Positions 4,313-20,591 of a stretch of DNA of 64,000 bases are shown in pieces. A model generated the notes under the pieces. The model saw only the letters and a list, made by a program, of their open reading frames with translations, ran no database searches and was not told the DNA's origin. The DNA comes from Staphylococcus sp. MI 10-1553 (GTDB lineage Bacteria; Bacillota; Bacilli; Staphylococcales; Staphylococcaceae), in NCBI RefSeq assembly GCF_010365305.1, contig NZ_CP048279.1, positions 248,001 through 312,000 of the forward strand, read 5' to 3'. Positions within the stretch are counted from its first letter, which is position 1. The number at the start of each line of letters is the position of its first letter. The position numbers and the translations under genes were made by a program.

Positions 4313-7300
4313 CTATTTCTCTTTACGTTGGCGTCTGAATCCGAATGCTGTTAAGACTGCGCCAACCATCATCGCCATTAAAGCCCCACGTGTATTTTGA
4401 GTCATATCCCCAGTTTTTGGTAATTCAGTCAAATGGTCATCTGGTAATGATTGTGCTGCGACATTTTCAACTTGTACGGGTGCTTGTTCTGTTGGTGCAT
4501 TGTCCATACCGTGTTGCATTGGTGCTGCCGTTGGATGCATAGGTGGCAACACTTGGTTCGTTGGTGTTGTAGTGATAGGATTTGACGCGCCTTCATCCCC
4601 CGTCGTTGCTTCAGGTAGTGTAACAGTTGGCGCATCTGTTCCATTTGTTGTCATGACGCCTTTGACTTCTGTATTGTCTGTCGTTGCACTGACATTCACA
4701 TCAGTGGTATCGCTATTATTGTCTGGTGCATTGCTTGGATTGGCGTTACTGTCATCTGTTCCATTCATTGGTGCGCTATCACCGTTTTCTTGAGTGGTAT
4801 CAGGCTTTGGTGCTTCAACTTCACGGATAGAAAGGTTGTCTAGAATGAAATCTTTCGTCCCTTCGAAGTTGATTTGATTGCCTTCTTTCACACCTCTTGG
4901 ATCATTTGGTGTTTTCGTTGAGTAAATACCAATCCAAGTTTGACCGTTTTCATCACCTGTCACTTTAAATGTCACGCGTTTTGCTTTGCCGCCATCGACT
5001 GTGTTTTTCAATGGTGTCTGCTCAAAGTTACGATTTTTTGAAATGTCTCCGCTTCCTGTGGCAAAGGCATACGTATCGTCAGAACCCGCTTCATAATCAA
5101 ATGACACTTCATATGTTTTTCCAGGCTCGAAGTAGAAGTTTTGCGGAACCGTTTGGATAACCATTTTATCTTTACCTGTTTGACCGTTTACCTTAAGCGA
5201 CCATTTGCCATCAATGACATCATCGACACGTTTATTGTTCCAACCGCGTTGTGTATACGGTGCATTTTTTTCAGATAAGTGAACACGATTATCTTCAACG
5301 CCTTCAACTTCTGACACGACGAATGGGAATAACCCTTGTGGTACATTTTCAAAGTCTTGGTTAAATGTGCCGTTTTGAAGGAGATTCGCGTTACTTTCTA
5401 ACACACGAATATCATCGAAATAAGTGGCACCTTCACCTGGGTCACGTTGAATCGTAAAATCTGCTTTGCCGTCTTCCGGTGCAACGAAGTACACGTACAT
5501 GTTTTGGAAGTAACTACCGCCATTTTTAAACGTCGCAGCATTGTTATTATGTGCATCTGCTTTCACATAGTTTTTCGCGATCGATTGACCCGTTTCGTTA
5601 CTTGCGAGCGTTTCACCATGATGTGTCACTGCAATGTGCGCCGCTGCGTTACTACGGTTATCGACGCCAACATAGACAGCGTAACGTTGACCCGGTACTA
5701 AACCTGTCAATTGTTGCGTTAATTTCGTTGTTTTTGTTGGACTATCGATTTTTAGCATTTCATTCGATGTTGTAGACTTTTCGATGCTCACTTTATCTTG
5801 ATTGCCCTCGATTGTCCAAGGTGTGAGTTGTTGTGAGTTAAAGCCGGCATCTTTCACGTGCATGTCTTCGCTCCAGTTCACATCTGTGTTGTCTGGTTGT
5901 GCGACTTTATAAATGACATATGGTGTGTCTGCTTTGATGTTATCGAGTGTCACTTGATGGTCCTTCACTGCTACTGTACGTGGTGACTTACGACCTGTTT
6001 CGGTTAATTCGTAAAGCACGACTTGGTCTGTATCCCATGATTCAGGTAGTGTCCAAGTAGTTGAACCGCCATTTTTATTCCAGTGATACAATTTTTCGTT
6101 ATCGCCAGTTAATGGTTGGCCGTTTGAATCCCAATCCCATGGCAATAAATAGGAATCACCATCGAGTACAGTGCGACCGTTCAACTCCATTGTACGTGAG
6201 CGGTAATTATCAATGTCGTTTTGATAGTCGTTAGATTTGCGTTTAACAGTGACTTTATCACCGGCCTCATTTTGTAAATCAACTTGCATTTCTGGTGTCC
6301 AGTCAATCGTTTGACCATTGGCAGTCATTTTAACAGGGTCACCATCGACGATACGCATCACTTTATAATGCTGTAAAAACTTCGTCGGTAAGTCGACGTT
6401 GAAAATGTTTTTAATATAAGCCGAATAATCGTTTCGACCTTGCCAACCTTCAAAGTCTTTCATATCATAGCCGCCAAGAAGTGGGAAGTCGGCTGCACCT
6501 GAATATTTTGGATAGTGACCCACCCATGAATCTTTTTGATGGTTACGCAAAAAGCGTGCCACTTCTGAATTAATCCCTTTATTTTGATACGTACCATAAG
6601 TTAAATCCGCTGCCCAGTGTTGGAATGTTGAGTCATATTCCATACCGTGACCCCATTCAACGCCGACGCGCCAACCTAAGTCATTGATTTCTTTCGCTAA
6701 TTGGTGTGATGGCCAAGCACTGTTATCACCAGATTGTCCGTTACCCCATACATCGACGTAAATAAAGTCGAGATCATCACCGACAATTCGTTTAAGTGCT
6801 TCGAAACGTGCTTTACGTCCGTGTGTTAAGTCATAGTCGGCATCGATGTTAAAGCCTTGATCGAGCCAGTTCCAACCATACATATAAGTGCCATCTTCAT
6901 TTTTTCTTAAAAGGTCAGGATCAAACGCTTTAGATTCTGGATATGTTTCAGAAGCGTTAATGTGGAGACCGAAACGTGCCCCATAATTTGCGCCTTTTTG
7001 AAGTAACGTTTTAAAGTCTTTAACGCCCCCCATACGTTGACCGATATTGTCATAATCTAAATGGCTAGAGTCGTGTCCTTCACTGTTATAGCCTTTTAAT
7101 AAAATCGATTGTCCTAAACCATCTGTGTTGAGATAGAATTTTTTCACACCATCTAACGTTTTTAAAAATGGATTTTGCGCTTGAGAACCAAAGTTCATCG
7201 CGATACGGTACCCAACAAGGTCAGGTACTTCTTCTGCACCATATGGATTGTTCATAATGCTACGGTAAGCAATCGCACCATCTTGCCAGTTGATTTCGCC

Positions 7301-8878
7301 ATCTTTGTTTTCATCTTCCGCAATCGCTATTTTCACATGTGGTAATAGTCCTTGATCTTTCGCATCTGGATGTTCAGCGTCTTTTTGGATAAACCAAGGC
7401 ATTGAACCTAAACCGACAGCCACACCGTTATCTGTTTCTGTAGACTGGGCATTGACACGTAAAAAGTCTTGATCACCACCAAAGCCGATTTGTGCGTTAC
7501 TCCATAACCCTGCGCTGTAGTCATCATTTGATACGAAACCATACATCATAAAGTCATTAAAATTATTTTTGAAATTCTCATCAATGTTATACGACTTATC
7601 GCCACTTTGCATCGTATTTGTAGACATTTTCGTTGTTTGTAGTTTGGCATTTTTTTGTTGATTATTCACTGATACGAGCGATTGACTCACAAAGCCAAAG
7701 TTGCGAATGACGTTTTGTGGATCTGTGTTGTTGTTCGTGTAATCTGTCATTTGTAAATCGACGGTCTGACCTTCAACTGATAAACGGAATTTGAAATTGG
7801 CATCAATCGAACGTGAATCATTTTGTGCTGTTAAGTCATATTCAGCCGTATGATCATCAATTTTGTTGTATTTGACCGTTGGCGTAATCACTTCACCGTT
7901 GACGATGATTTGACGTGCATCAGTCACTTGCGCATCGACTTTTTTACCATTTTTCAACGTGTAATATTTAACAGCAGGAAAACTTTTATCAATCGTTGCT
8001 GTCATCTCTTTTGACGTCAACGTATCGACGGCATCATCTTGTTGCGTGGCTGCTGCACGAGTCATCGTTTTGTTCGGATCAGCTGTCTTGGCGTTGTCAC
8101 GTGGTGGTGTCGCAACAGTTGCTTTGTCAGCTGTGTTGGCATCTTCAGGTTGGTCTTGTGCAGGAGATGACGGCTGTGCGTTACTGTCGACACTTTTTAT
8201 TGTGACATCAGTCGTTGCTTTGTCAGCTTGTTGTGCGTAAGGTGTCGGTGCCGTTGACTTATTCGTGTGTTGTTCTTGTTTTGTTGAAGCAGCACCCACA
8301 TTTTTAGGTTGCACTTCAGTTGATGCGTTTTGTTGTGGTGTTGCATCCTCAACTGTTGCTTGTTGTTGCACTTCTTGAGATGCTTCTGACTGAGGAGGTT
8401 GTTGCGCTTGTGGTGTATTGTCAGCAGTCGGTGCTGTCTGAGTATCTTCTTTCTTTGCTACAGTTGCAGATTCTGGATGCGTTGTATCATCATTGGCTTT
8501 TGGCGCGTCTGTAACAGGAGGTGCGGTTGTTGAATCTGCTGTTTGAGTTTGATTGATATCTGATGTGTCTTTGGGTGCTGTTTGGTCCGCTTTAGGTTGC
8601 GTTTGTTCTTGAGGTGATGTCGTTTGATCTGTTTGTTGTGTTGTCTCTTTAGTTGTCGTTGAAGCATTCGTGTCTGCGTTAGGTTGTGTGACGTCGGTTG
8701 GCGAAGTATGAGAAGAAGTTGTTTCTGCTTGATTTGTCTCTGTTTTTGCAGGTGTATTGTTTTCAGTTGCAGATGCAGTTGCGTCATGTGTTATAAATAA
8801 TGTCACGCCTAATAATACTGATGAAGTTCCAATTGCATATTTCCGGATACCATAGTGTTGTTTCTGTTGATTAAACAT
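4313..8878 (-). CDS. Cell-wall-anchored endo-alpha-N-acetylgalactosaminidase (GH101)
   Basis: A 1521-residue surface enzyme of family GH101, which removes the core-1 disaccharide Gal-beta-1,3-GalNAc from Ser/Thr of mucin-type glycoproteins. It begins with a YSIRK-like signal (HYGIRKYAIGTSSVLLG). A T/Q/P-rich stalk follows to about residue 290, then the galactose-mutarotase-like and barrel domains, C-terminal carbohydrate-binding modules, a second disordered linker, and LPKTG at residue 1486 with a hydrophobic helix and basic tail for sortase. The catalytic pair is visible: Asp709 in YVDVWGN (nucleophile) and Glu741 in GVEWGHG (acid/base), 32 residues apart as in the pneumococcal enzyme. I chose the ATG at 8878 because GAGGAG lies 11 bases upstream; a GTG at 8890 sits right against that site. 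It diverges from the import and catabolism operon. Confidence 0.93.
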   Translation of the reverse strand: MFNQQKQHYGIRKYAIGTSSVLLGVTLFITHDATASATENNTPAKTETNQAETTSSHTSPTDVTQPNADTNASTTTKETTQQTDQTTSPQEQTQPKADQTAPKDTSDINQTQTADSTTAPPVTDAPKANDDTTHPESATVAKKEDTQTAPTADNTPQAQQPPQSEASQEVQQQATVEDATPQQNASTEVQPKNVGAASTKQEQHTNKSTAPTPYAQQADKATTDVTIKSVDSNAQPSSPAQDQPEDANTADKATVATPPRDNAKTADPNKTMTRAAATQQDDAVDTLTSKEMTATIDKSFPAVKYYTLKNGKKVDAQVTDARQIIVNGEVITPTVKYNKIDDHTAEYDLTAQNDSRSIDANFKFRLSVEGQTVDLQMTDYTNNNTDPQNVIRNFGFVSQSLVSVNNQQKNAKLQTTKMSTNTMQSGDKSYNIDENFKNNFNDFMMYGFVSNDDYSAGLWSNAQIGFGGDQDFLRVNAQSTETDNGVAVGLGSMPWFIQKDAEHPDAKDQGLLPHVKIAIAEDENKDGEINWQDGAIAYRSIMNNPYGAEEVPDLVGYRIAMNFGSQAQNPFLKTLDGVKKFYLNTDGLGQSILLKGYNSEGHDSSHLDYDNIGQRMGGVKDFKTLLQKGANYGARFGLHINASETYPESKAFDPDLLRKNEDGTYMYGWNWLDQGFNIDADYDLTHGRKARFEALKRIVGDDLDFIYVDVWGNGQSGDNSAWPSHQLAKEINDLGWRVGVEWGHGMEYDSTFQHWAADLTYGTYQNKGINSEVARFLRNHQKDSWVGHYPKYSGAADFPLLGGYDMKDFEGWQGRNDYSAYIKNIFNVDLPTKFLQHYKVMRIVDGDPVKMTANGQTIDWTPEMQVDLQNEAGDKVTVKRKSNDYQNDIDNYRSRTMELNGRTVLDGDSYLLPWDWDSNGQPLTGDNEKLYHWNKNGGSTTWTLPESWDTDQVVLYELTETGRKSPRTVAVKDHQVTLDNIKADTPYVIYKVAQPDNTDVNWSEDMHVKDAGFNSQQLTPWTIEGNQDKVSIEKSTTSNEMLKIDSPTKTTKLTQQLTGLVPGQRYAVYVGVDNRSNAAAHIAVTHHGETLASNETGQSIAKNYVKADAHNNNAATFKNGGSYFQNMYVYFVAPEDGKADFTIQRDPGEGATYFDDIRVLESNANLLQNGTFNQDFENVPQGLFPFVVSEVEGVEDNRVHLSEKNAPYTQRGWNNKRVDDVIDGKWSLKVNGQTGKDKMVIQTVPQNFYFEPGKTYEVSFDYEAGSDDTYAFATGSGDISKNRNFEQTPLKNTVDGGKAKRVTFKVTGDENGQTWIGIYSTKTPNDPRGVKEGNQINFEGTKDFILDNLSIREVEAPKPDTTQENGDSAPMNGTDDSNANPSNAPDNNSDTTDVNVSATTDNTEVKGVMTTNGTDAPTVTLPEATTGDEGASNPITTTPTNQVLPPMHPTAAPMQHGMDNAPTEQAPVQVENVAAQSLPDDHLTELPKTGDMTQNTRGALMAMMVGAVLTAFGFRRQRKEK

Positions 8879-8935
8879 TTGTCTATGCACTCCTCAAAAG
8901 ATTAATTGAATAGAATATATAATTTTTATACTTTT

Positions 8936-8951
8936 TTGTAAACCCTTACAA
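8936..8951. promoter_or_regulatory. cre-like site at the GH101 promoter
   Basis: TTGTAAACCCTTACAA is a palindrome matching the CcpA-binding consensus WTGNAANCGNWNNCAW except for one central base. It lies 58 bp upstream of the GH101 start, beside TATAAA-like -10 text on the minus strand, so CcpA bound there would block the promoter. This would subject mucin-glycan release to carbon catabolite repression. Confidence 0.45.
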
Positions 8952-9104
8952 CTCCGCTGTTATGGTATTTTTGTCAGGTTGTAGGATGGGAAATAATACC
9001 ACTTTTTTAACGCAATTCAGCTCTTTTGGAATGACAAAAAATGTATACAGCGACATTGTTTGTTGCGATTGTTCAATAATGCGCAAACTAAAAAAATATT
9101 AGAG

Positions 9105-9116
9105 TGGTTATAACCA
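9105..9116. promoter_or_regulatory. Palindromic operator 1 (probable GntR site)
   Basis: TGGTTATAACCA is a perfect 12-bp palindrome, repeated exactly at 9287-9298. GntR/UTRA regulators usually bind such short palindromes next to their own gene. This copy lies about 200 bp from either flanking promoter, so looping between the two sites or control of the GH101 side is possible. Confidence 0.65.
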
Positions 9117-9251
9117 GAAAAATGATAGAAAAAATTTTTTTGAGCAATGATTTTGATAGGGTTTTCTAAAAGTGCAACAATAGGGTTGCAATTTGCTATA
9201 GAGAATATTGTAAACGCTTTATTTAAAAAGGCGAAAATTAATATTAAAGCC

Positions 9252-9280
9252 TTTACAAAAATAGTAAGAGTCTTTATAAT
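9252..9280 (+). promoter_or_regulatory. Sigma-A promoter of the gntR-agaS-PTS-nagA operon
   Basis: TTTACA at 9252-9257 and TATAAT at 9275-9280 are separated by exactly 17 bp, giving an expected transcript start near 9287, inside operator 2. A weaker cre-like sequence (TTGTAAACGCTTTATT, 9208-9223) lies just upstream. Confidence 0.7.
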
Positions 9281-9286
9281 TTAAGG

Positions 9287-9298
9287 TGGTTATAACCA
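9287..9298. promoter_or_regulatory. Palindromic operator 2 (probable GntR site)
   Basis: The second exact copy of TGGTTATAACCA overlaps the predicted transcript start and lies just before the gntR ribosome site, the classic place for repression by blocking initiation. The ligand is probably a phosphorylated amino sugar such as GalNAc-6-P or GalN-6-P, inferred from the operon content. Confidence 0.7.
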
Positions 9299-9317
9299 GT
9301 AGGCGGTGAACAATGTC

Positions 9318-10028
9318 ATGTCTGAAAAATTACTATTGTACTATCAAGTGTACAAAGGCATTCATAGTCGTATTAAGGCTGGTGAGTATAAAGAAGGCGA
9401 TAAAATACCATCAGAACGTAAGCTGTGTGAGCAGTTTGGTGTAAGTCGAATTACTGTGCGTGAAGCTTTAGATCGCTTAGAAAAAGATCATGTCATTAAA
9501 CGCGAACACGGCAAAGGATCCTTTGTGCTTGGTAGTCAATATACACAGTTTTTGAACGAACTTTATAGTTTTAAAGATGAAATAGAAAAGAATGGTGATG
9601 AGGCGAGTACAAAAATGTTAAGCATTAAACTCATTCCATCTACCACGTTTTTGCAAGAAAAAATGAATTTGAAACCCTATCAATATGTTTATGAATTAAA
9701 GCGCTTACGACTTTCGAATGATGTTCCGCTCATATACGAGGTGAGTTATTTGCCAATGCGTTTTTGCGAAGGGCTCGAGCAATTTGATTTTAATCGTGTC
9801 TCTCTCTATGAAACGCTCAATCGTCATTACGGTTTGCAAATAACGAATGCTTGTGAGAATTTGACGGCGAGTAAGTTGAGTAAAGAACATGCGAAATTGT
9901 TGAATGGTGTAGTTGATGACAGTTGTATGTTTATTGAACGCTTTAGTTATGTAGATGAAGATTTGATTGAGTTTACACAAAGTATTGCAAGTGGACATAA
10001 ATATAAATACACCGTGCAATTGATGTAA
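9318..10028 (+). CDS. GntR/UTRA family regulator of the O-glycan locus
   Basis: A 236-residue repressor. The N-terminal winged helix-turn-helix is clear (YKEGDKIPSERKLCEQFGVS, then ITVREALDRLEKDHVI, residues about 25-65), and the C-terminal part has the UTRA sugar-phosphate sensor fold. I chose the ATG at 9318 because AGGCGG lies at normal distance; the GTG at 9306 overlaps that site. It is first in the operon and probably represses both its own operon and the divergent GH101 gene through the two identical palindromes. It resembles NagR/YvoA-type regulators. Confidence 0.88.
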   Translation: MSEKLLLYYQVYKGIHSRIKAGEYKEGDKIPSERKLCEQFGVSRITVREALDRLEKDHVIKREHGKGSFVLGSQYTQFLNELYSFKDEIEKNGDEASTKMLSIKLIPSTTFLQEKMNLKPYQYVYELKRLRLSNDVPLIYEVSYLPMRFCEGLEQFDFNRVSLYETLNRHYGLQITNACENLTASKLSKEHAKLLNGVVDDSCMFIERFSYVDEDLIEFTQSIASGHKYKYTVQLM

Positions 10029-10056
10029 TCATAAAAATGATATGGGAGGTAGTATT

Positions 10057-11172
10057 GTGTTACATGAAACAGATACTTATCGCGAAATAAAGCAACAACC
10101 ACAAACTTTGAAAAAAACGTTTGATATTGTTCAAGGACAACAAGAGGCATTCAACCAATTTGTGAATCAAATCGAACAAGAACATGCAGGGAAAAAATTA
10201 AAAGTGCTTTTCACAGGCGCAGGATCAAGTGCCTATGTCGGTGATGTCGCACGTATGGCACGCAACACGTCTGTGATGCCAAACTTTGAATTTGAATCTG
10301 TACCGACAACGCATTTTGTGACAGACCCACAACTTTATATCGATGAACAAACGGCCTATCTTGTTGTGTCATTTGCGCGTTCAGGTAACAGTCCAGAAAC
10401 GAAAGCGACAGTCGAATTTGTGAATGAACTTTCTCAAAGTGTGTATCACTTATTCATTACAAATAATAAAGACGGTTTCTTAGGGACATACGAAGCGGAT
10501 AAAGACAATGTGTTCAAAGTGATCTTGCCTGAAGAAACAAACGACAAGTCACTCGCAATGACATCAAGCTTTTCATCAATGTTATTTGCAAGTTACTTAC
10601 TCTTTGGTGGTAAAGTGAGTCCACAATTTTTCGAGATTGCAGAATCAAACTTTGAGTGGCTCGAACAACAAGCTCAAGCTGTGAATGCAATGACATTTTC
10701 AAAAGTGTTCTACGTAGCGACAGGCTTGATTGGTGAGTTAACAAAAGAAGTGAGCTTAAAACTGAACGAATTAACTGCAGGACAAACAGAAATCGCGCGT
10801 GAAACAACGTTAGGTTTCAGACACGGTCCTAAAGCAGGCTTAGGCAAAGATGCCATATTTATTATGATGCGTAGTAATGGTGCATATCACCGTCAATACG
10901 AAGATGACTTGATTAAAGAAGTTGGCCAAGTGAAAGATCGTTACAAAATGTACATTTTAGACGGTCAAAGTGAAGCAGGTGAGCATACTGTCCAATTGCC
11001 ACAATCTGAATCATTATCAGATATAGAACTTGCATTGCAATATTTGATGTTTGGGCAGTTACTCGCTGCACAACGTTCTGATGCATTAGGTTTAAATCCG
11101 GATAACCCAAGTCCAGACGGCTTTATTAACCGTGTTGTTAAAGGGGTAACGATTTATCCAGTTAAAGGGTGA
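10057..11172 (+). CDS. agaS: AgaS-type SIS-domain sugar deaminase/isomerase
   Basis: A 371-residue protein with two SIS domains, shown by LFTGAGSSAYVGD near residue 50 and VSFARSGNSPETK near residue 105, and a conserved GFRHGPKAGLG in the second half. AgaS enzymes convert galactosamine-6-phosphate to tagatose-6-phosphate with release of ammonia, the step needed here between the deacetylase and the kinase. The GTG at 10057 follows GGGAGG by six bases and is preferred over the ATG at 10042, which overlaps the site. It is second in the operon, with the tagatose-6-phosphate kinase gene 6 bp downstream. Confidence 0.88.
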   Translation: MLHETDTYREIKQQPQTLKKTFDIVQGQQEAFNQFVNQIEQEHAGKKLKVLFTGAGSSAYVGDVARMARNTSVMPNFEFESVPTTHFVTDPQLYIDEQTAYLVVSFARSGNSPETKATVEFVNELSQSVYHLFITNNKDGFLGTYEADKDNVFKVILPEETNDKSLAMTSSFSSMLFASYLLFGGKVSPQFFEIAESNFEWLEQQAQAVNAMTFSKVFYVATGLIGELTKEVSLKLNELTAGQTEIARETTLGFRHGPKAGLGKDAIFIMMRSNGAYHRQYEDDLIKEVGQVKDRYKMYILDGQSEAGEHTVQLPQSESLSDIELALQYLMFGQLLAAQRSDALGLNPDNPSPDGFINRVVKGVTIYPVKG

Positions 11173-11178
11173 TGAATA

Positions 11179-12117
11179 ATGATTGCAACACATACGTTTA
11201 ATCCATCTGTAGACATCACGTACGAAATTGACCCGCTCGTGGTCGGTGAAGTCCATCGTGTCAAACAGAAAATTGAAAATCCAGGTGGTAAAGGGATTAA
11301 TGTGACGAAAGTGCTCAATCAATTAGGCGCGACGCACTGTGCTTTTGGCTATCTCGGAGGTGCCAATGGTCAGTGGATGGCTGACACGTTGAAAGGGATG
11401 GGCATTACAAGTGCGTTTACGTTAATCAAAGGACAGACAAGGCAAAGTTTAGCGTTGAATGATGGCCAAGCCCAAACAGAAGTACTTGAGCAAGGTCCAA
11501 CGATTTCAGAAAGCGAACAACAAGCTTATTTTGAAAACGTCACACAACATGCTGCAGATGCGAAAGTGATGACGATTAGCGGAAGTTCACCGCAGTTCGA
11601 AACGCATTCGAAGTTTGACCATATGGCACGCATTTTAAAAGCGTTCCCACATACGTATAATATTGTCGATACACATGCGGGCGAGTTAAAAGCGTTGTTA
11701 GAAGCTCAGTTGCCGATTCACTGTATTAAACCGAACCAATCTGAATTTGAAATGTTAGTCGGTGAAACACAGTTAACGATTGATGATTGTGCACGTTTGT
11801 TACAAACACATGCGTATTTTAAAAATTGCGATGTCTTTTTAACGCTAGGTGGAGACGGTGCGCTTGTGAAGTGGAAGCAAGACATTTATCGTGCGACATT
11901 GCCACATAAGGACATTGTCAATCCAGTCGGTTCGGGTGATTCAACTGTGGCAGGCATTGCTTACGGTGTGGATCAAGATTTAGCGCCTGAAGCGTTAATT
12001 CGTCAAGCTTTAGCATGTGGGACATCGAATGCTTTACAAGAAAAAACAGGCTTTATTGATGTCAATCAAGTCGCTGAAATTAAAAATGAAATAGAAGTGG
12101 AGAGATTTGAATGGTAA
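11179..12117 (+). CDS. lacC: Tagatose-6-phosphate kinase / 1-phosphofructokinase family (PfkB)
   Basis: A 312-residue sugar kinase of the PfkB family. NPGGKGINVTKVLNQLG near residue 35 forms the sugar-binding signature, and NPVGSGDSTVAGIAYG near residue 250 carries the anion hole and catalytic Asp. The LacC/FruK subgroup phosphorylates tagatose-6-P (or fructose-1-P) to the bisphosphate. Its place between AgaS and a LacD aldolase, with a 7-bp overlap onto the latter, argues for tagatose-6-P. Whether the strain has another lacC in a lactose operon cannot be seen here. Confidence 0.85.
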   Translation: MIATHTFNPSVDITYEIDPLVVGEVHRVKQKIENPGGKGINVTKVLNQLGATHCAFGYLGGANGQWMADTLKGMGITSAFTLIKGQTRQSLALNDGQAQTEVLEQGPTISESEQQAYFENVTQHAADAKVMTISGSSPQFETHSKFDHMARILKAFPHTYNIVDTHAGELKALLEAQLPIHCIKPNQSEFEMLVGETQLTIDDCARLLQTHAYFKNCDVFLTLGGDGALVKWKQDIYRATLPHKDIVNPVGSGDSTVAGIAYGVDQDLAPEALIRQALACGTSNALQEKTGFIDVNQVAEIKNEIEVERFEW

Positions 12118-13052
12118 AAGATTTAAGTCGTTTAGTAGATGAAAATGGAATTTATGCAGCAGTGGCAGTAGACCAACGTGGCGCATTAAGAAAATTGCTA
12201 GGTGACACAGGCACACCTGAAAACTTGTCATTATTTAAAAAATTGGTGGCAGAAGTGTTAACGTCACACGGTTCTAGCTTTTTAGTAGACCCTGAATATG
12301 GTTTAGATGCTGCAAAAGCGAAAGATGCAAAAGCAGGCTTAATCTTATCTTATGAACAAACAGGTTATGATAAGTCTCGTCCTGGACGTTTACCACGTTT
12401 AATTGAAGATCAAAGCGTACGTCGTCTTGTTGAAGCGGGTGCAGACGCAGTGAAGTTCTTGCTATACTATGATGTAGATGAATCAGACGAAATCAACCAA
12501 AAGAAACAGGCGTTGATCGAACGTGTAGGAACAGAGTGTCAAGCTGAAAACGTCCCATTTTTACTTGAAATCTTAACTTACGATGACAGCATTGGTGACG
12601 AAAAAGGTGAAGCATTTGCAAAAGTTCGTCCACACAAAGTTAACGAAGCAATGCGTGTATTTAGTGAACCACGTTTTCAAGTAGACACATTGAAAGTGGA
12701 AATTCCAGTAAACATGAACTTTGTTGAAGGATTTGGAGACAAAGCAGTGATGACACAAGCAGAAGCGGCAGAAGCGTTTAAAGCGCAAGATGCAGCAACA
12801 AACATCCCTTATATTTACTTAAGTGGTGGCGTATCTGCACAATTATTTATGGATTCACTCCAATTTGCAGCTGACAATGGTGCACATTTCAACGGTATTT
12901 TATGTGGTCGTGCAACATGGAAAGGTGCAACTACAGCACTTGTAGACGCAGGTGAACAAGAAGCAAAAGCATGGTTGGAAAGTGAAGGTCTTGATAACTT
13001 GAAAGCGCTTAATGAAGTGAATGTAAAAACAGCAACACCAATTCAATCTTAA
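12111..13052 (+). CDS. lacD: Tagatose-1,6-bisphosphate aldolase (LacD family)
   Basis: A 313-residue class I aldolase that splits tagatose-1,6-bisphosphate into dihydroxyacetone phosphate and glyceraldehyde-3-phosphate. The LacD pattern is clear from VAVDQRGALRKLLGD near residue 20 onward. DTLKVEIPVN holds Lys195, the likely Schiff-base lysine. The start codon overlaps the end of the kinase gene. This step joins galactose-configured sugars to glycolysis. Confidence 0.88.
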   Translation: MVKDLSRLVDENGIYAAVAVDQRGALRKLLGDTGTPENLSLFKKLVAEVLTSHGSSFLVDPEYGLDAAKAKDAKAGLILSYEQTGYDKSRPGRLPRLIEDQSVRRLVEAGADAVKFLLYYDVDESDEINQKKQALIERVGTECQAENVPFLLEILTYDDSIGDEKGEAFAKVRPHKVNEAMRVFSEPRFQVDTLKVEIPVNMNFVEGFGDKAVMTQAEAAEAFKAQDAATNIPYIYLSGGVSAQLFMDSLQFAADNGAHFNGILCGRATWKGATTALVDAGEQEAKAWLESEGLDNLKALNEVNVKTATPIQS

Positions 13053-13064
13053 TGAGGTGATTAT

Positions 13065-14837
13065 GTGAGTCGTTTCAAAATAAGCGATACATTTTTATTA
13101 GATGACAAACCAATCAAGATATTGTCCGGTGCCATCCATTACTTTAGAATACCAAAGGATGACTGGGAAGATTCATTATACAATTTGAAAGCACTCGGAT
13201 TTAATACAGTGGAAACTTATGTCCCTTGGAACTTTCATGAAACGATTGAAAATGCATACGACTTCAAAGGACATAAAGATTTAAAACATTTTATTGAACT
13301 TGCAGCAACGCTTGGACTTTACGTCATCGTACGACCATCTCCGTATATTTGTGCGGAGTGGGAGTTCGGTGGATTTCCAGCGTGGTTACTTAATGACCGT
13401 ACAATGCGTATCCGTTCGAGAGATGAGAAATATTTAGAAAAAGTGAAAAAATATTATCATGAACTGTTTAAAATCTTAACGCCATTACAAATTGATCAAG
13501 GCGGCCCGATTATCATGATGCAAGTCGAAAATGAATACGGTTCATTCGGTCAAGATCACGCGTATTTACGTGCACTTGCTAACATGATGCGTGAAGAAGG
13601 TGTCACTGTACCTTTCTTCACATCAGACGGTGCTTGGGATCAATGTTTAAGAGCGGGTAGTCTCATTGAGGATGATATTTTACCGACAGGCAATTTTGGT
13701 TCTCGTACAGTTCAAAATTTTGAAAACTTAAAGACGTTCCAACAAGAATTCAGTAAAAAGTGGCCGTTAATGTGTATGGAATTTTGGGATGGCTGGTTTA
13801 ATCGCTGGGGTGAACCTGTGATTAAACGAGACAGTGATGATTTGTCTGAAGAAGTGCGCGATGCAGTGAAATTAGGCTCACTTAATTTATATATGTTCCA
13901 TGGCGGGACAAACTTTGGTTTTTGGAACGGTTGCTCTGCACGTGGTACGAAAGATTTACCACAAGTCACATCTTATGACTATCATGCGCCGTTAGATGAA
14001 GCAGGTAATCCAACAGAAAAATACTTCGCTTTACAAGAGATGCTCAAAGAAGAAATTCCTGACATTGAGCAACATAAACCAAGAACGAAAACATTTATGT
14101 CAATGAAAGATATTCCATTGGCAGACAAAGTGAATTTATTCGAAGTACTTGAAGACATTTCGACAAAAACGACAAGCTTCTACCCACAAACGATGGAAGA
14201 AGCGGGTTCTGGCTATGGTTATATGGTGTATCGTACACGTATCCATAAAGCGACAGAACAAGAAAAATTACGCATTGTAGACGCAAGAGACCGTGTCCAC
14301 TGTTTTGTAGACCAACAGCATGTCTACACAGCGTATCAAGAAGAAATTGGAGGTCAATTTGAAGTCACATTAACTTCTGACCAACCACAAATCGATGTGC
14401 TCGTTGAAAATATGGGGCGTGTCAACTACGGCTACAAATTATTAGCACCGACACAACGTAAAGGTTTAGGTCAAGGACTCATGCAAGATCTTCATTTCGT
14501 ACAAGAGTGGGAACAATTTGATATCGACTTCGACCGTTTAACGGCAGATCATTTTAAACGCGAATGGTCTGAACAACAACCTGCTTTTTACAAATACACA
14601 TTTGACTTAGCAGAGCCGAACAATACGCACATTGATGTAAGCGATTTCGGCAAAGGTGTTGTACTCGTCAACGGATTCAACATCGGTCGTTATTGGGAAA
14701 TTGGACCGTCACAGTCGCTCTACATTCCTAAAGCATTTTTGAAACAAGGACAAAATGAAATTATCGCGTTTGACTCAGAAGGAAAACATTCAGAAAGTAT
14801 CCAACTGATTGAAACACCAAAATTTTCTGAAGTATAA
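13065..14837 (+). CDS. bgaC: Cytoplasmic GH35 beta-galactosidase (BgaC-like, beta-1,3 preference)
   Basis: A 590-residue enzyme without a signal peptide. The GH35 barrel starts at once (GAIHYFRIPKDDWEDSLYNL). Glu157 in QVENEYGSFG is the acid/base and Glu239 in MEFWDGWFNRW is the nucleophile. The C-terminal part has the beta-sandwich domains of the family. Pneumococcal BgaC of this type cleaves terminal Gal-beta-1,3-linked residues and lies in a similar operon with an EII-mannose-family PTS. Here it would split imported galacto-N-biose inside the cell. It starts with GTG after GAGGTGA. The beta-1,3 specificity is inferred from context. Confidence 0.88.
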   Translation: MSRFKISDTFLLDDKPIKILSGAIHYFRIPKDDWEDSLYNLKALGFNTVETYVPWNFHETIENAYDFKGHKDLKHFIELAATLGLYVIVRPSPYICAEWEFGGFPAWLLNDRTMRIRSRDEKYLEKVKKYYHELFKILTPLQIDQGGPIIMMQVENEYGSFGQDHAYLRALANMMREEGVTVPFFTSDGAWDQCLRAGSLIEDDILPTGNFGSRTVQNFENLKTFQQEFSKKWPLMCMEFWDGWFNRWGEPVIKRDSDDLSEEVRDAVKLGSLNLYMFHGGTNFGFWNGCSARGTKDLPQVTSYDYHAPLDEAGNPTEKYFALQEMLKEEIPDIEQHKPRTKTFMSMKDIPLADKVNLFEVLEDISTKTTSFYPQTMEEAGSGYGYMVYRTRIHKATEQEKLRIVDARDRVHCFVDQQHVYTAYQEEIGGQFEVTLTSDQPQIDVLVENMGRVNYGYKLLAPTQRKGLGQGLMQDLHFVQEWEQFDIDFDRLTADHFKREWSEQQPAFYKYTFDLAEPNNTHIDVSDFGKGVVLVNGFNIGRYWEIGPSQSLYIPKAFLKQGQNEIIAFDSEGKHSESIQLIETPKFSEV

Positions 14838-14851
14838 GGAGAGGATTTATA

Positions 14852-15331
14852 ATGGCAATTATTGGAAGCAGAATCGATGGTAGATTAATTCACGGACAAG
14901 TGGCAAACTTATGGGCAACAAAATTAAACATTGGACGTTTTATCGTTATTGATAATGAAGTCGCTCAAAGCGATATCGACAAACAAGCATTAAAACTTGC
15001 GACACCAGCAGGGATTAAATTAAGTGTATTACCAGTTGAAAAAGCAGCTAACAACATCAACAATGGTAAATATGATTCACAACGTGTGATGGTGATCGCA
15101 AAACGTCCTGATCGCTTTGTTGAACTTGTGAACAATGGCGTAAAAATTGAAGAATTGAACGTAGGGAACATGTCACAAACAAATGAAACACGTTCAGTAA
15201 CAAACTCAATCAACATTACTGACGAAGATGTAGACAACTTCAAATTTTTACAAGAAAAAGGTGTCAATATCATTTCACAAATGGTACCAAACGATAAATC
15301 AGTTGACTTTATGTCATTAATCAAAAAATAG
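14852..15331 (+). CDS. PTS system IIB component, mannose/sorbose family
   Basis: A 159-residue cytoplasmic phosphotransfer protein. GSRIDGRLIHGQVANLW contains the phosphorylated histidine, His14. It receives phosphate from the IIA protein and passes it to the incoming sugar. It begins the four-gene PTS block IIB-IIC-IID-IIA, located between bgaC and the deacetylase gene. The substrate is predicted to be galacto-N-biose and/or GalNAc because of the surrounding enzymes. Confidence 0.9.
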   Translation: MAIIGSRIDGRLIHGQVANLWATKLNIGRFIVIDNEVAQSDIDKQALKLATPAGIKLSVLPVEKAANNINNGKYDSQRVMVIAKRPDRFVELVNNGVKIEELNVGNMSQTNETRSVTNSINITDEDVDNFKFLQEKGVNIISQMVPNDKSVDFMSLIKK

Positions 15332-15352
15332 AACTATCAGGAGGCGTTTCTA

Positions 15353-16252
15353 TTGGACATTTTATGGTGGCAAGTATTGCTCTTAACGCTGTACGCAGGT
15401 TATCAAATTTTAGATGATTTGCAATTTAATATTTTTGGACATCCTGTATTTGCAGGGATTATTTCAGGTTTAATCATGGGCGATATTACTACCGGTTTAA
15501 TTATCGGTGGGGGTATGCAGTTAACAATTCTAGGGGTAGGTACATTCGGTGGTGCATCAAGAATCGATGCGAACTCAGGTACGGTATTAGCGGTTGCATT
15601 CTCAGTAGCACTCGGAATGAACCCACAACAAGCCCTTGCGACACTTGCTGTACCTGTAGCGAGCTTAATGATTCAAACAGATATTTTAGCGCGTTTCACA
15701 AACACATTCTTTGCACATCGTATTGATAAAAAAATTGAACAAATGGATTACAAAGGTATTGAACGTAACTACTTATACGGTGCAATTCCATGGGCGTTAT
15801 CTCGTGCGATCCCAGTATTTTTAGCACTTGTATTCGGTGGTAGCGTTGTAGGTAAAATCGTTGACTACTTAAACGGTGACTTAAAATGGTTAGGTGACGG
15901 TTTAACAGTTGCAGGTGCGGTATTACCAGCAGTCGGTTTCGCTATTTTATTACGTTACTTACCTTTGAAAAAACATTATCCTTACTTTATTTTAGGTTTT
16001 ATCATTACAGCATTAATGGTAACAGTCTTTAACGGTTTATCAGGTTTAGGTACATCAGTTGCAGGTTTAGACAAAAACTTTACAATGTCATTCTCATCAT
16101 TACCAATGTTAGCGATTGCAGCGATTGGTTTTGCTTTAGCGGCAATGGAGTATAGTCGAAGTTCACAATCTAAAACAATAGCTGCAAATCATGGCGGAAA
16201 CCAAGCAACAGATGCGGACGATGAAGGAGAGATTGACGATGACGAATTATAA
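15353..16252 (+). CDS. PTS system IIC component, mannose/sorbose family
   Basis: A 299-residue membrane channel protein with about eight hydrophobic segments. It has family features in LQFNIFGHPVFAGIISGLIM and in GGGMQLTILGVGTFGG. The start is TTG with a GGAGG site ahead. The tail is hydrophilic and acidic (DADDEGEIDDDEL), and its last 14 bases overlap the IID gene, so translation of the two is coupled. It forms the transport pore with IID. Confidence 0.9.
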   Translation: MDILWWQVLLLTLYAGYQILDDLQFNIFGHPVFAGIISGLIMGDITTGLIIGGGMQLTILGVGTFGGASRIDANSGTVLAVAFSVALGMNPQQALATLAVPVASLMIQTDILARFTNTFFAHRIDKKIEQMDYKGIERNYLYGAIPWALSRAIPVFLALVFGGSVVGKIVDYLNGDLKWLGDGLTVAGAVLPAVGFAILLRYLPLKKHYPYFILGFIITALMVTVFNGLSGLGTSVAGLDKNFTMSFSSLPMLAIAAIGFALAAMEYSRSSQSKTIAANHGGNQATDADDEGEIDDDEL

Positions 16253-17123
16253 TCAAACGGAAACACAAATTTCTCAAAACGCTGATGCAAATTCAAAGTT
16301 AACAGGAACAATGCCTCAAACACCTTATAAACTGACTGATAAAGACTTTAGACAAATCAACATACGTAGCTTATTGTTCTTCCAATGGGGTTGGAACTAC
16401 GAGCGTATGCAAGGGTCTGGTTATTTATTCACGATCCTTCCACAATTACGTAAAATTTATGGTGACGATTCACCTGAATTACAAGAAATGATGCGAACAC
16501 ACGCGCAATTCTTCAATACAAGTAACTTCTTTAACACGATTATTACGGGTATTGATATTGCGATGGAAGAAAAAGAACGCTATGCATCAAAAGAATCTGT
16601 CAAAGGGATGAAAGTCGGCTTAATGGGACCATTTGCGGCTGTAGGGGATGCGATTTTCGGTTCATTAGTCCCTACAATTTTCGGTGCCATTGCAGCAAAC
16701 ATGGCGCAAGACGGTAACCCATTCGGTGCATTACTTTGGTTTGTCGCAATGCTTGCTATTATCGTATTCAGATGGAAACAATTGAAATTCGCATACAAAG
16801 AAGGGATTTCACTTGTGACAACGATGCAACACCGCTTAGAATCATTAACGAATGCAGCAACATTGCTCGGGGTATTCATGGTCGGTGCACTCGTCGCAAC
16901 GATGATTCGTGTTCAATTTGCTTGGAAACCAAAAATTGGTGATTTAACAGTCAACATTCAAAACAATGCCGACATGATTTTACCAAGATTATTACCTTTG
17001 ATTATTGTATTTGCGATTTACTGGTTATTAGGACGTAAAAAAATGAACTCAACACGTGCAATCTTTATTGTGATTATTGTTTCAATTATTTTGTCAGCGT
17101 TGGGTGTTATTTCAAAAATTTAA
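16239..17123 (+). CDS. PTS system IID component, mannose/sorbose family
   Basis: A 294-residue membrane protein. The family pattern is visible in LFFQWGWNYERMQGSGYLF, in KVGLMGPFAAVGDAIFGSL and in a strongly hydrophobic C terminus. The ATG at 16239 overlaps the IIC stop region and follows AAGGAGA; an earlier in-frame ATG at 16191 lies inside IIC and is less likely. The IID subunit is unique to the mannose family and partners IIC in sugar translocation. Confidence 0.9.
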   Translation: MTNYNQTETQISQNADANSKLTGTMPQTPYKLTDKDFRQINIRSLLFFQWGWNYERMQGSGYLFTILPQLRKIYGDDSPELQEMMRTHAQFFNTSNFFNTIITGIDIAMEEKERYASKESVKGMKVGLMGPFAAVGDAIFGSLVPTIFGAIAANMAQDGNPFGALLWFVAMLAIIVFRWKQLKFAYKEGISLVTTMQHRLESLTNAATLLGVFMVGALVATMIRVQFAWKPKIGDLTVNIQNNADMILPRLLPLIIVFAIYWLLGRKKMNSTRAIFIVIIVSIILSALGVISKI

Positions 17124-17144
17124 TTCGATGGGAGCATTTGGACT

Positions 17145-17543
17145 ATGGAAAAGTTAATCCTTGTGAGTCACGGCGCTTTTTGTGAAGGGCTTAAAGACAG
17201 TGTAGAAATGATTCTTGGGCCTCAAGATTACATTCATACTGCAGCATTGACACCAGAAATGGGGCCTGAAGATTTTGAAAAAGCATTAGACACACTCATT
17301 GATGAAGGCGATCAAGTGACAGTTTTTGCAGATTTATTAGGCGGTACACCAGCGAATACCGTTTCTAAAAAAATTATGAATGGGGCAGACTTAAACCTTT
17401 ATGTAGGGATGAGCTTACCAATGGTGATTAGCTATATTAATGGTAAAATGATTGGTGAACAACCTGACTATGTGCAAAAAGCGCAAGAAGGTATCATTTA
17501 CGTCAACGCGCTGTTAAATCAAGACGATGACGAGGATGAATAA
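17145..17543 (+). CDS. PTS system IIA component, mannose/sorbose family
   Basis: A 132-residue cytoplasmic protein. LILVSHGAFCEGLKDSVEM carries the phosphorylated His9, which accepts phosphate from HPr. FADLLGGTPANTVS near residue 65 is the second conserved segment. A short acidic tail (DDDEDE) closes it. It is a stand-alone IIA, unlike E. coli ManX where IIA and IIB are fused. Confidence 0.9.
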   Translation: MEKLILVSHGAFCEGLKDSVEMILGPQDYIHTAALTPEMGPEDFEKALDTLIDEGDQVTVFADLLGGTPANTVSKKIMNGADLNLYVGMSLPMVISYINGKMIGEQPDYVQKAQEGIIYVNALLNQDDDEDE

Positions 17544-17574
17544 AACAATCAAATTATAGTAAAGAAGGTATACT

Positions 17575-18732
17575 ATGACATATGCAATTACAAATGGCGT
17601 CATTTATACAGAAGACGGTGTGATCTCAGACGGCTACCTTATTGTGGAAGACGGCAAAATTAAAGCGATTGAAACGGGTGCGTATACTGGAGACTTAGAA
17701 GTTGTAGATGCAAAAGGGCGTCACATCTTACCAGGTTTCATTGACGTGCATATTCACGGTGGTTATGGTGAAGATGCGATGGATGGTTCATACGATGGCT
17801 TGAAATATTTAGCTGAACATCTACTGACAGAAGGCACAACAACATTTTTAGCAACAACGATGACACAATCTCAAGAAGCGATTGAAAAAGCACTGCGCAA
17901 TATTAGTGTTTATCATCAGCAACAAGATGTGACGAATGCTGCTGAAGTGGGTGGTGTGCATTTAGAAGGGCCGTTCATTTCTGAGCATAAAATCGGAGCA
18001 CAAAATCCAGCATTTATTCAAAGACCGACTGTTGAATTGTTGCGTCATTTCCAAGAGACTGCGACAGGACTCATTAAAATCGTGACGATTGCACCTGAAG
18101 TTGAAGGCGCAAGTGAAGTCATTCAAACGTTAAAAGATGAATTTATCTTTTCAATGGGACATACTGAAGTCGACTTTGATCAAGCGAACACAGCAGCAGC
18201 AGAAGGTGTCAAACACGTTACACACTTGTACAATGCGGGTGTCGGTTTCCATCATAGAAATCCAGGCATGTTTGGTGCGGCATGGACAAACGAACAATTA
18301 AGTACAGAAGTCATTGTCGACGGGGTACATTCACACCCTCAATCAGTCGCAATTGCATACCAACATAAAGGTCCAGAAAAAATGTATTTAATTACGGATG
18401 CGATGCGTGCAAAAGGAATGCCAGAAGGTGACTATGAACTAGGTGGTCAGAAAGTGATTGTGAAAGATCATGAGGCACATTTGGAAACAGGCTCTTTAGC
18501 AGGAAGCATTTTGAAAATGAATGACGGTTTACGCAATTTGATTCAATTTACGGGCGAGCGTTTAGAAACGTTATGGCCTATTACAAGCTTGAATCAGGCG
18601 AAAGCGTTGAAGATTGATGATCGCAAGGGAAGTATTGCGGTAGGTAAGGATGCCGATCTTGTGATTGTAGATGATGAAATTCAAGTATATCAAACGATTA
18701 AAATGGGGCGTGTGCATGACATGATGCACTAA
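17575..18732 (+). CDS. nagA: N-acetylgalactosamine/glucosamine-6-phosphate deacetylase
   Basis: A 385-residue amidohydrolase-fold deacetylase. The HxH metal pair is His59 and His61 in DVHIHGGYGED. HLEGPF, GHTEVDFDQA, THLYNAG and LITDAM follow in family order, the last giving the catalytic Asp. In this operon it would deacetylate GalNAc-6-P to GalN-6-P, feeding AgaS, so it acts as AgaA even though it reads as NagA-like. A general NagA role for GlcNAc-6-P is possible if the genome has no other copy. It is the last gene, followed by a terminator. Confidence 0.88.
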   Translation: MTYAITNGVIYTEDGVISDGYLIVEDGKIKAIETGAYTGDLEVVDAKGRHILPGFIDVHIHGGYGEDAMDGSYDGLKYLAEHLLTEGTTTFLATTMTQSQEAIEKALRNISVYHQQQDVTNAAEVGGVHLEGPFISEHKIGAQNPAFIQRPTVELLRHFQETATGLIKIVTIAPEVEGASEVIQTLKDEFIFSMGHTEVDFDQANTAAAEGVKHVTHLYNAGVGFHHRNPGMFGAAWTNEQLSTEVIVDGVHSHPQSVAIAYQHKGPEKMYLITDAMRAKGMPEGDYELGGQKVIVKDHEAHLETGSLAGSILKMNDGLRNLIQFTGERLETLWPITSLNQAKALKIDDRKGSIAVGKDADLVIVDDEIQVYQTIKMGRVHDMMH

Positions 18733-18745
18733 AGACGCTTAATGA

Positions 18746-18790
18746 GGGCGATAGCAATTGGGTATGAATCCAGTTGTTATCGTCTTTTTT
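18746..18790 (+). terminator. Terminator of the O-glycan catabolic operon
   Basis: GGCGATAGCAATTGG and CCAGTTGTTATCGTC form a long stem around a short loop, followed by TTTTTT. It lies 14 bp after the nagA stop codon and closes the ten-gene operon. Confidence 0.85.
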
Positions 18791-20484: not shown

Positions 20485-20559
20485 CGTGTTACTGGTAAAA
20501 CAGGCATGAGCAAAATGTAAGCTATTAAAAAATAGTTTTGTTTGCGCATGCCTTTTTTT
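20485..20559 (+). promoter_or_regulatory. GlcT-type RNA antiterminator (RAT) and overlapping terminator in the ptsG leader
   Basis: GTGTTACTGGTAAAACAGGC followed by ATGAGCAAAA matches the ribonucleic antiterminator of Bacillus/Staphylococcus ptsG leaders. It overlaps the left arm of a terminator in which GGCATGAGCAAAA pairs with TTTGCGCATGCC, followed by TTTTTTT. In known systems GlcT binds the RAT when glucose is present and stops terminator formation, so ptsG is transcribed. The glcT gene is not in this window. Confidence 0.8.
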
Positions 20560-20591
20560 ATATATTATTGATTGATAAGGGGTGTTTTAAA

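What the first reader, a model, noticed from the sequence alone, without database searches (positions are those of the whole stretch)
4313..18732. Complete mucin core-1 O-glycan harvesting pathway in a Staphylococcus
Every step is encoded side by side: a wall-anchored GH101 enzyme to release Gal-beta-1,3-GalNAc, a mannose-family PTS for uptake, a cytoplasmic GH35 galactosidase, a GalNAc-6-P deacetylase, AgaS, a tagatose-6-P kinase and a LacD aldolase. The pneumococcal counterpart is spread over several loci and lacks a dedicated LacC/LacD pair in the operon, as far as I recall. This suggests a self-contained colonisation trait for mucin surfaces. What remains open is whether the disaccharide or the two sugars are imported, and what phosphorylates galactose set free inside the cell.
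Basis: partly seen in the sequence, partly recalled or inferred. Interest (0 to 1): 0.8.

Follow-up and report, generated by a model that had tools for sequence, protein, structure and literature searches.

The report
Mucin-sugar operon with surface O-glycanase
A Staphylococcus carries, side by side, the genes to cut the sugar Gal-GalNAc off mucin-like proteins, import it and burn it; close cousins are known in enterococci and lactobacilli, but here the same locus also seems to supply enzymes that the cell's milk-sugar pathway has lost.

Summary
A divergent wall-anchored GH101 gene faces ten genes: AgaR, AgaS, LacC, LacD, GH35, PTS IIB/IIC/IID/IIA, NagA. Between them lie two TGGTTATAACCA palindromes, the only exact copies in the 2.9-Mb genome, matching an operator that S. 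suis AgaR2 is reported to bind. It is a staphylococcal variant of known aga/gnb operons; some enterococci have GH101 of another lineage beside theirs. GH35 is in 17 of 84 Staphylococcus genomes, GH101 in 8, always at this locus. The second operator is in all 8, and in 2 of the 9 loci without GH101.

"Self-contained, dedicated" is only partly right. Leloir genes and two sialidases lie elsewhere. NagA is the genome's only one over cut-off and LacC its only clear one: the lac operon is lacABDFEG, without lacC. In five other genomes of the genus the lac operon lacks lacC and lacD. In the four of these whose aga locus was fetched, LacC and LacD sit behind agaR; three of the four have no GH35, and no PTS or nagA at that locus. 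So the locus probably also supplies the lower tagatose-6-phosphate pathway for lactose. Enzyme specificities and regulation are inferred, not tested.

The parts
4313..8878 (-). GH101 endo-alpha-N-acetylgalactosaminidase, YSIRK-type signal, LPKTG sorting motif
   Evidence: PF12905 398.6 bits and four further GH101-associated Pfam domains; IYVDVWG (Asp713) and EWGHG (Glu745) kept; GWNWLDQ and YAVYVGVDNR motifs of the classic O-glycanase type
8914..8942 (-). predicted GH101 promoter (TTTACA-17-TATATT), overlapped by the palindrome TGTAAACCCTTACA (cre-like, weak)
   Evidence: palindrome exact in 4 of the 5 intergenic regions aligned
9105..9116 (.). distal AgaR operator TGGTTATAACCA
9252..9280 (+). 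predicted agaR promoter TTTACA-17-TATAAT
   Evidence: 11 of 12 matches, best in the region scanned
9287..9298 (.). proximal AgaR operator TGGTTATAACCA at the predicted transcription start
   Evidence: exact in 17 of 17 Staphylococcus loci
9306..10028 (+). AgaR, GntR/HutC-type (UTRA) regulator, presumed repressor
10042..11172 (+). AgaS, galactosamine-6-P deaminase/isomerase family
   Evidence: TIGR02815 325 bits, below cut-off 529; 3odp, 3i0z, 3c3j
11179..12117 (+). LacC-like tagatose-6-P kinase; only clear LacC of the genome
   Evidence: best solved relatives are tagatose-6-P kinases 2awd, 2jg1
12111..13052 (+). LacD-type tagatose-1,6-bisphosphate aldolase
   Evidence: TIGR01232 411, below cut-off 432; NF009498 400 over 184
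13065..14837 (+). GH35 beta-1,3-galactosidase (BgaC/GnbG type), no signal peptide seen by eye
   Evidence: (BgaC 4e8c E=1.6e-231)
14852..15331 (+). PTS-Man IIB
15353..16252 (+). PTS-Man IIC
16233..17123 (+). PTS-Man IID
17145..17543 (+). PTS-Man IIA
17575..18732 (+). NagA-type N-acetylhexosamine-6-P deacetylase; only NagA of the genome over cut-off
   Evidence: (TIGR00221 380.5 vs cut-off 225.65)
18744..18787 (+). predicted intrinsic terminator of the operon (20-pair stem)

Best explanation
Wall-anchored GH101 releases Gal-beta-1,3-GalNAc from desialylated core-1 O-glycans. The mannose-type PTS brings in the disaccharide (and probably free GalNAc) with phosphate on GalNAc. Cytoplasmic GH35 splits it into galactose and GalNAc-6-P. 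NagA and AgaS give tagatose-6-P; LacC and LacD give triose phosphates. Galactose goes to GalK, GalT and GalE, encoded elsewhere. AgaR represses the operon from a palindrome at its own start; a second palindrome goes with GH101. The locus is a GalNAc/core-1 operon of the known aga/gnb kind to which GH101 was added in staphylococci, and its LacC (and NagA) also serve the rest of the cell: the lac operon has lost lacC. Shown: genes, order, operators, distribution, absence of lacC from the lac operon. Inferred: enzyme specificities, site of phosphorylation, repression, service to lactose use.
For: Gene content and order. GH101 in 8 of 84 genomes, all 8 among the 17 GH35 carriers and at this locus. 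Operator: exactly two in the genome, reversed control 0; same core as the EF1809 site bound by S. suis AgaR2 in EMSA (PMC4694137 section 22). Distal operator in 8 of 8 GH101 loci and 2 of 9 others; S. intermedius lacks GH101 between flanks collinear with the window yet keeps the distal operator. galK over cut-off in 15 of 17 GH35 carriers, all 8 GH101 carriers among them; G019, G022 and G037 have the operon and galK but no LacA-family hit, so Gal-6-P has no LacAB route there. Window genome: galT, galE-type and galK genes in a row. Sialidase PF13088 in 5 of 84 genomes, all 5 GH101 carriers. LacC: all 53 genomes with a lac-type lacA have a LacC homologue of 205 bits or more (with stops in 2); the only 3 others with one are aga carriers without lacA. 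Of the 9 GH35 carriers with both aga-lacC and lacA, the lac operon lacks lacC in 8, the own genome included, and holds it in two pieces in 1 (G007); the 3 S. simulans-type genomes without aga-lacC have full-length lacC in the lac operon.
Against: No expression, binding or enzyme data for this species. The distal operator is about 160 bp from the predicted GH101 promoter, so control of GH101 by AgaR is circumstantial, and two loci have it without GH101. L. casei GnbG is reported to give N-acetylhexosamine plus Gal-6-P (passage of PMC10629584), the opposite phosphorylation, and the window genome has lacAB. G001 and G015 have the operon but no galK. Three of 8 GH101 carriers have no PF13088 sialidase. 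Kinase and AgaS are below NCBIfam cut-offs. FruK or Pfk could stand in for LacC on lactose. Counts are not corrected for shared ancestry.
Confidence: 0.75

Rival explanations
1. Lactobacillus casei model: the PTS puts phosphate on galactose; GH35 releases Gal-6-P and GalNAc; Gal-6-P enters via LacAB, LacC and LacD, and GalNAc needs another phosphorylation.
For: Stated for L. casei GnbG (passage of PMC10629584); GnbG called a phospho-beta-galactosidase (passages of PMC5940811, and PMC6109692, which adds low activity on unphosphorylated forms); lacA and lacB present in the window genome; G001 and G015 have lacA but no galK.
Against: G019, G022 and G037 have the full operon, galK, and no LacA-family hit. 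NagA and AgaS need GalNAc-6-P, which this route does not give directly. GH35 keeps BgaC sequence around both catalytic glutamates, and BgaC is described as cutting terminal Gal-beta-1,3-GlcNAc of oligosaccharides (passage).
Confidence: 0.2
2. GH35 acts at the cell surface, as was claimed for pneumococcal BgaC, and the PTS imports GalNAc and galactose separately.
For: Pneumococcal BgaC is described as surface-exposed and its PTS was assigned to galactose (passages of PMC5018945 and PMC3302838).
Against: No signal peptide or anchor is visible at the GH35 ends (sequence; no predictor run), while GH101 has both. The pneumococcal PTS mutant showed no phenotype. L. casei PTS-Gnb takes up the disaccharides.
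Confidence: 0.1
3. The locus is mainly a central amino-sugar and tagatose-6-P hub; GNB and mucin are minor substrates and GH101 is an optional extra.
For: GH101 missing in 9 of 17 loci; sole NagA over cut-off in the window genome; sole clear LacC in the window genome; in G003, G042 and G075 only agaR-agaS-lacC-lacD is found at the locus, with agaS reduced to a broken part in G042.
Against: GH35 (62-96% identity) and the four PTS genes (54-99%) are kept in all 16 other loci, though GH35 is split in G041; GH101, sialidase and the distal operator tend to go together.
Confidence: 0.2

Closest known systems
Enterococcus faecalis aga operon (EF1809 region), with GH101 OG1RF_11509 and GH35 OG1RF_11514
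   Same: GalNAc genes reported in a single operon with an AgaR2 site of the same 12-base core, tagatose-6-P kinase gene included (PMC4694137); GH101 and GH35 locus tags five apart (passage of PMC13098192)
   Different: E. faecalis DNA itself was not compared here; in the four other enterococci whose fetched loci hold GH101 it is 36-38% identical, on the same strand and downstream
Lacticaseibacillus casei gnbREFGBCDA operon
   Same: Regulator, deaminase/isomerase, deacetylase, GH35, PTS-Man; growth on GNB, LNB and GalNAc (passages)
   Different: No GH101 in it; a cell-wall GH20 (BnaG) lies upstream instead; no lacC or lacD in the gene string given; reported product Gal-6-P
Streptococcus pneumoniae aga operon (bgaC-gadVWEF-agaS-galM)
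   Same: GH35 56-57% identical in S. mitis-group loci; same PTS type; GntR repressor
   Different: No nagA, lacC or lacD in the operon; a different, AT-rich 20-base operator; GH101 unlinked in the sampled genomes taken as Streptococcus
Streptococcus suis aga regulon (AgaR1, AgaR2)
   Same: AgaR2 binds TGGTTATAACCA-type sites, at bgaC, agaS and agaA promoters (PMC4694137 section 22)
   Different: Genes at several loci; two regulators

Membership tests
AgaR2-type GalNAc (aga/gnb) operon | GntR/UTRA regulator with TGGTTATAACCA-type palindrome | tested here: met
   published site seen
AgaR2-type GalNAc (aga/gnb) operon | PTS-Man IIABCD, GH35, AgaS and deacetylase in one run | tested here: met
AgaR2-type GalNAc (aga/gnb) operon | Regulator binds the palindromes and is released by a GalNAc-derived effector | not testable with these tools
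   needs EMSA
GH101 endo-alpha-N-acetylgalactosaminidase | GH101 catalytic domain with nucleophile Asp and acid/base Glu | tested here: met
   Asp713 and Glu745, 32 residues apart, as in SpGH101 (its residue numbers 764 and 796 are recalled)
GH101 endo-alpha-N-acetylgalactosaminidase | classic core-1 type rather than sialyl-tolerant POGase | tested here: met
   motifs GWNWLDQ and YAVYVGVDNR against the motif list in passages of PMC11861894; sequence only, not an activity test
GH101 endo-alpha-N-acetylgalactosaminidase | NCBIfam SpGH101 exception model NF040533 (cut-off 2900) | tested here: not met
   1428.7 bits: same family, not an SpGH101 by that model
GH35 beta-1,3-galactosidase (BgaC) | catalytic Glu pair and W240/W243/Y455-type +1 site | tested here: met
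   alignment; roles of W240, W243 and Y455 recalled
LacC tagatose-6-P kinase (TIGR01231) | score above equivalog cut-off 409.55 | tested here: not met
   211.9 bits; passes TIGR03168 hexose kinase subfamily; so 'works like LacC', not filed as a LacC equivalog
LacD (TIGR01232) | score above equivalog cut-off 432.2 | tested here: not met
   411 bits; passes subfamily NF009498
AgaS family (TIGR02815) | score above cut-off 529.2 | tested here: not met
   325.3 bits; homologous over its length
NagA (TIGR00221) | score above cut-off 225.65 | tested here: met
   380.5 bits

The most novel reading that the evidence does not exclude
In a group of staphylococci two sugar pathways share one lower half encoded at the GalNAc locus: the lac operon has shed lacC (and in some lineages lacD), so lactose use depends in trans on LacC/LacD behind AgaR. 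AgaR would then have to answer to a signal common to both routes, such as tagatose-6-P. In lineages without the GalNAc transporter genes at this locus, agaR-(agaS)-lacC-lacD persists because lactose use needs it.
Probability: 0.5. Interest if true: 0.5.

Novelty: new variant of a known kind. Interest (0 to 1): 0.42.

Why it matters
It gives animal-associated staphylococci a testable route to feed on core-1 O-glycans, which I did not find described in the papers searched. GH101 seems to have been joined to this operon separately in staphylococci and in enterococci (different GH101 lineages), which argues that surface release and GalNAc import form a working unit. The outsourced lacC would show two catabolic operons sharing enzymes across loci, and would explain why part of a GalNAc operon is kept in species without its transporter genes.

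Tried and rejected
Considered and dropped: (1) recent foreign import of the whole locus: GC is 0.36-0.42, like the rest of the window, and GH101 and operon trees run broadly in parallel within staphylococci. (2) POGase-type, sialyl-tolerant GH101: motifs argue against it. (3) A wider AgaR regulon: no third exact palindrome in the genome (inexact sites were not searched genome-wide). (4) DNA looping between the two operators: spacing runs from 152 to 205 bp (from the offsets) without clear helical phasing, and the loop would enclose the agaR promoter, not GH101's; left open. (5) A promoter for GH101 overlapping the distal operator: none listed. (6) Naming the divergent ORF in S. auricularis: no Pfam or NCBIfam hit.

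Papers. GH101 with Staphylococcus pseudintermedius: 0 papers; endo-alpha-N-acetylgalactosaminidase with it: 0; a wider search with mucin, O-glycan and delphini listed 10, none with a staphylococcal GH101 in the title or abstract start shown; lacC missing in staphylococci: 8 listed, none on point by title and abstract start; S. pseudintermedius with N-acetylgalactosamine and galactosidase: 2 listed, neither on point. Only listings were seen there. Bidart et al. 2014 on the gnb operon was not seen; it is cited through later papers.

Limits of the scripts. In one search only 5 of 8 GH101 loci entered the intergenic alignment, because no YSIRK match was found in L107, L108 and L109. In one search the S. 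agnetis locus L006 has only about 240 bases upstream of agaR. L157 and L188 were fetched and not analysed.
Full report
What is there. The window is bases 248001-312000 of a single-contig genome of 2,896,994 bases. The nearest named relative is Staphylococcus pseudintermedius (GH35 96%, GH101 conserved part 94%), then S. cornubiensis and S. intermedius (GH35 95%), so it belongs with the S. intermedius group; no call names the species itself. A wall-anchored GH101 gene runs leftward from 8878 to 4313. Facing it is a run of ten genes with gaps of at most 31 bases: agaR, agaS, lacC, lacD, GH35, IIB, IIC, IID, IIA, nagA, ending at a strong predicted terminator at 18744-18787. Pfam and NCBIfam assign each part. 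GH101 has five GH101-associated Pfam domains plus a YSIRK signal, and the catalytic region is homologous to the solved enzymes 3ecq/5a55-5a5a and 2zxq.

Not chance. The GH35 protein was found in 17 of 84 Staphylococcus genomes and PF12905 in 8 of 84. tblastn of the window proteins on the fetched loci shows agaR-agaS-(lacC)-(lacD)-GH35-IIB-IIC-IID-IIA in all 17, nagA next in 16 (not in G049), lacC missing in 5 (G001, G015 and the three S. simulans-type genomes) and lacD missing in 3 (the S. simulans type). G041 has its GH35 in two pieces. GH101 is upstream and divergent in all 8 that have it.

Control region. TGGTTATAACCA occurs perfectly at 9105-9116 and 9287-9298. In the whole genome these are the only two exact sites, and the reversed control has none. 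With two mismatches allowed the window gives 7 matches against 3.7 expected, so only the exact sites count. Zhang et al. 2015 (PMC4694137; outline and sections 19, 20 and 22 read) report by EMSA that S. suis AgaR2 binds TTGTGGTTATAACCAGTT in front of E. faecalis EF1809, the same core. The proximal site sits at the predicted start of the agaR transcript (-10 ends at 9280) and is exact in 17 of 17 Staphylococcus loci. The distal site (at most 1 mismatch) is in 8 of 8 GH101 loci and in 2 of 9 others, S. intermedius and S. auricularis. In S. intermedius the sequence is collinear with the window up to 3779 and resumes at 9234, with the GH101 stretch absent. On the operon tree S. intermedius lies with four GH101 carriers in a group of full support, though its exact sister has only 48%, so this is best read as loss of GH101 with its operator left behind. 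In S. auricularis an unidentified divergent ORF is there. GH101 does not mark one clean group on the operon tree: G011, G015 and S. agnetis, near the carrier G030, lack both GH101 and the distal site, so several losses or more than one gain are needed. The distal site is about 160 bp from the predicted GH101 promoter, so how AgaR would control GH101 is not shown.

Pathway. GH101 carries the classic O-glycanase motifs GWNWLDQ and YAVYVGVDNR (motif list from passages of PMC11861894), not the POGase ones, so it should need desialylated core 1. The window genome has two proteins with sialidase N-terminal and BNR domains, at about 72.5-74.6 kb and 1.02 Mb. Sialidase (PF13088) is found in 5 of 84 genomes, all five among the 8 GH101 carriers; three carriers have none (Fisher p 1.8e-6, ancestry not corrected). 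GH35 is homologous to BgaC 4e8c and to 8h25 over its full length, with the catalytic motifs and the residues aligned to W240, W243 and Y455 of BgaC kept (the role of these three is recalled). A PTS of this kind transports GNB, LNB and GalNAc in L. casei (passages of PMC5940811).

Galactose. The window genome has galK over cut-off beside galT and a galE-type epimerase. galK is over cut-off in 15 of 17 GH35 carriers against 32 of 67 others (Fisher p 0.0026, ancestry not corrected). G019, G022 and G037 have the operon and galK but no LacA-family hit, so there the LacAB route for Gal-6-P is closed. This favours phosphate on GalNAc and free galactose. Against it stands the L. casei literature: a review passage says GnbG gives N-acetylhexosamine and Gal-6-P (PMC10629584), and another calls the enzyme weak on unphosphorylated forms (PMC6109692). 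G001 and G015, without GH101, have lacA but no galK.

Shared enzymes. Two parts are not dedicated. NagA: TIGR00221 finds one hit over cut-off in the window genome, the one in this operon. By the same table the aga copy is the only one over cut-off in 10 of the 17 operon genomes, 6 have a second, and G049 has one elsewhere. LacC: the window genome's only clear LacC is the one here (211 bits). The next listed hit, 168 bits at 2387495, lies in the score range of a hit seen in most of the genomes and is probably FruK (inference); a third, weaker match is not listed. Its lac operon is lacR-lacA-lacB-lacD-lacF-lacE-lacG, with 80 bases between lacB and lacD and no lacC. Across the genus, 53 of 84 genomes have a lac-type lacA (42 over cut-off, 11 at 127-138 bits); all 53 have a LacC homologue of at least 205 bits, and the only 3 further genomes with one are G019, G022 and G037, which have the aga operon and no lacA (counted). 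In two of the 53 (G054, G056) that LacC holds stops. Of the 12 GH35 carriers with aga-lacC, 9 have lacA; their lac operons, all fetched, lack lacC in 8 (own, G011, G016, G030, G041, G049, G052, G058) and hold it in two pieces in 1 (G007). The three S. simulans-type genomes, without aga-lacC, have full-length lacC in the lac operon. G001 and G015, also without aga-lacC, lack it there and have their best LacC hit elsewhere; G036, without this GH35, is like them. So the pattern is that lacC may move, not that it always moves to the aga locus. In G003, G042, G049, G075 and G076 the lac operon lacks lacC and lacD alike. G049 has the aga operon with LacC and LacD. In G003, G042 and G075 the aga locus holds only agaR-agaS-lacC-lacD with an exact operator, and agaS is down to a broken C-terminal part in G042; these genomes have no GH35 match. 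The aga locus of G076 was not fetched, and lacD was not sought genome-wide. That LacC and LacD are kept where the GalNAc uptake genes are missing is hard to explain unless they serve lactose or galactose use.

Evolution. In a sample of 398 genomes of the class, 18 have a GH101 match at 1e-30. The tree puts the staphylococcal GH101 in one starred group, beside a starred group of seven f27/g32 genomes (which I take to be Streptococcus) and one other row, 50-54% identical. The GH101 genes next to the aga operon in E. moraviensis, E. ureasiticus, E. quebecensis and Enterococcus sp. 5H form another starred group at 36-38%. Long branches meet in that tree, as its output warns. In the seven f27/g32 genomes GH101 and GH35 are unlinked as far as the assemblies show. 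Linkage of GH101 with the operon therefore most likely arose at least twice. Of the 80 named loci fetched, GH101, lacC and nagA all occur together only in two, both Staphylococcus, but that sample is the best GH35 matches and does not include E. faecalis.

Verdict. A real, conserved locus with a dedicated-looking operator pair; a new variant of the aga/gnb operon. The biochemical pathway reading is sound. The 'self-contained, dedicated' part is not; the more surprising point is that this locus seems to hold enzymes that the lactose pathway has outsourced.

Noticed in passing
G000:C1 about 1018070-1023855 (L156:70-5855), outside the window: One sialidase sits in a cluster with a DapA/NanA-like end (by sequence only), a sodium:solute symporter, a YhcH protein and a Gfo/Idh oxidoreductase, a make-up that recalls 2,7-anhydro-sialic acid use (resemblance recalled, not tested).
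   Followed up: partly
G000:C1 about 2096000-2098711 (L153:1-2712), outside the window: Cas9-like protein (REC lobe, HNH) near the lac operon.
   Followed up: no
L114 (G041), aga operon: GH35 is in two pieces (two tblastn stretches) while GH101 and the rest of the operon match over their length.
   Followed up: no
L005:4709-5869, minus strand (S. auricularis): A divergent open frame of 387 codons (stop to stop) with no Pfam or NCBIfam hit takes the place of GH101 behind a distal AgaR-type operator.
   Followed up: partly
L164 (G007, S. auricularis lac operon): lacC matches in two pieces in the lac operon while the aga-type lacC matches in full, as if replacement were under way.
   Followed up: partly
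L166 (G063, S. simulans type, lac operon): lacD matches in two adjoining pieces (7466-7837 and 7842-8363), unlike in G064 and G065.
   Followed up: no
window 20538-22652: Glucose-type PTS IICBA gene (TIGR02002 over cut-off) shortly downstream of the operon.
   Followed up: no
window 9129-9141: An A/T tract (AAAAAATTTTTTT) next to the distal operator is largely conserved in the five intergenic regions aligned.
   Followed up: no
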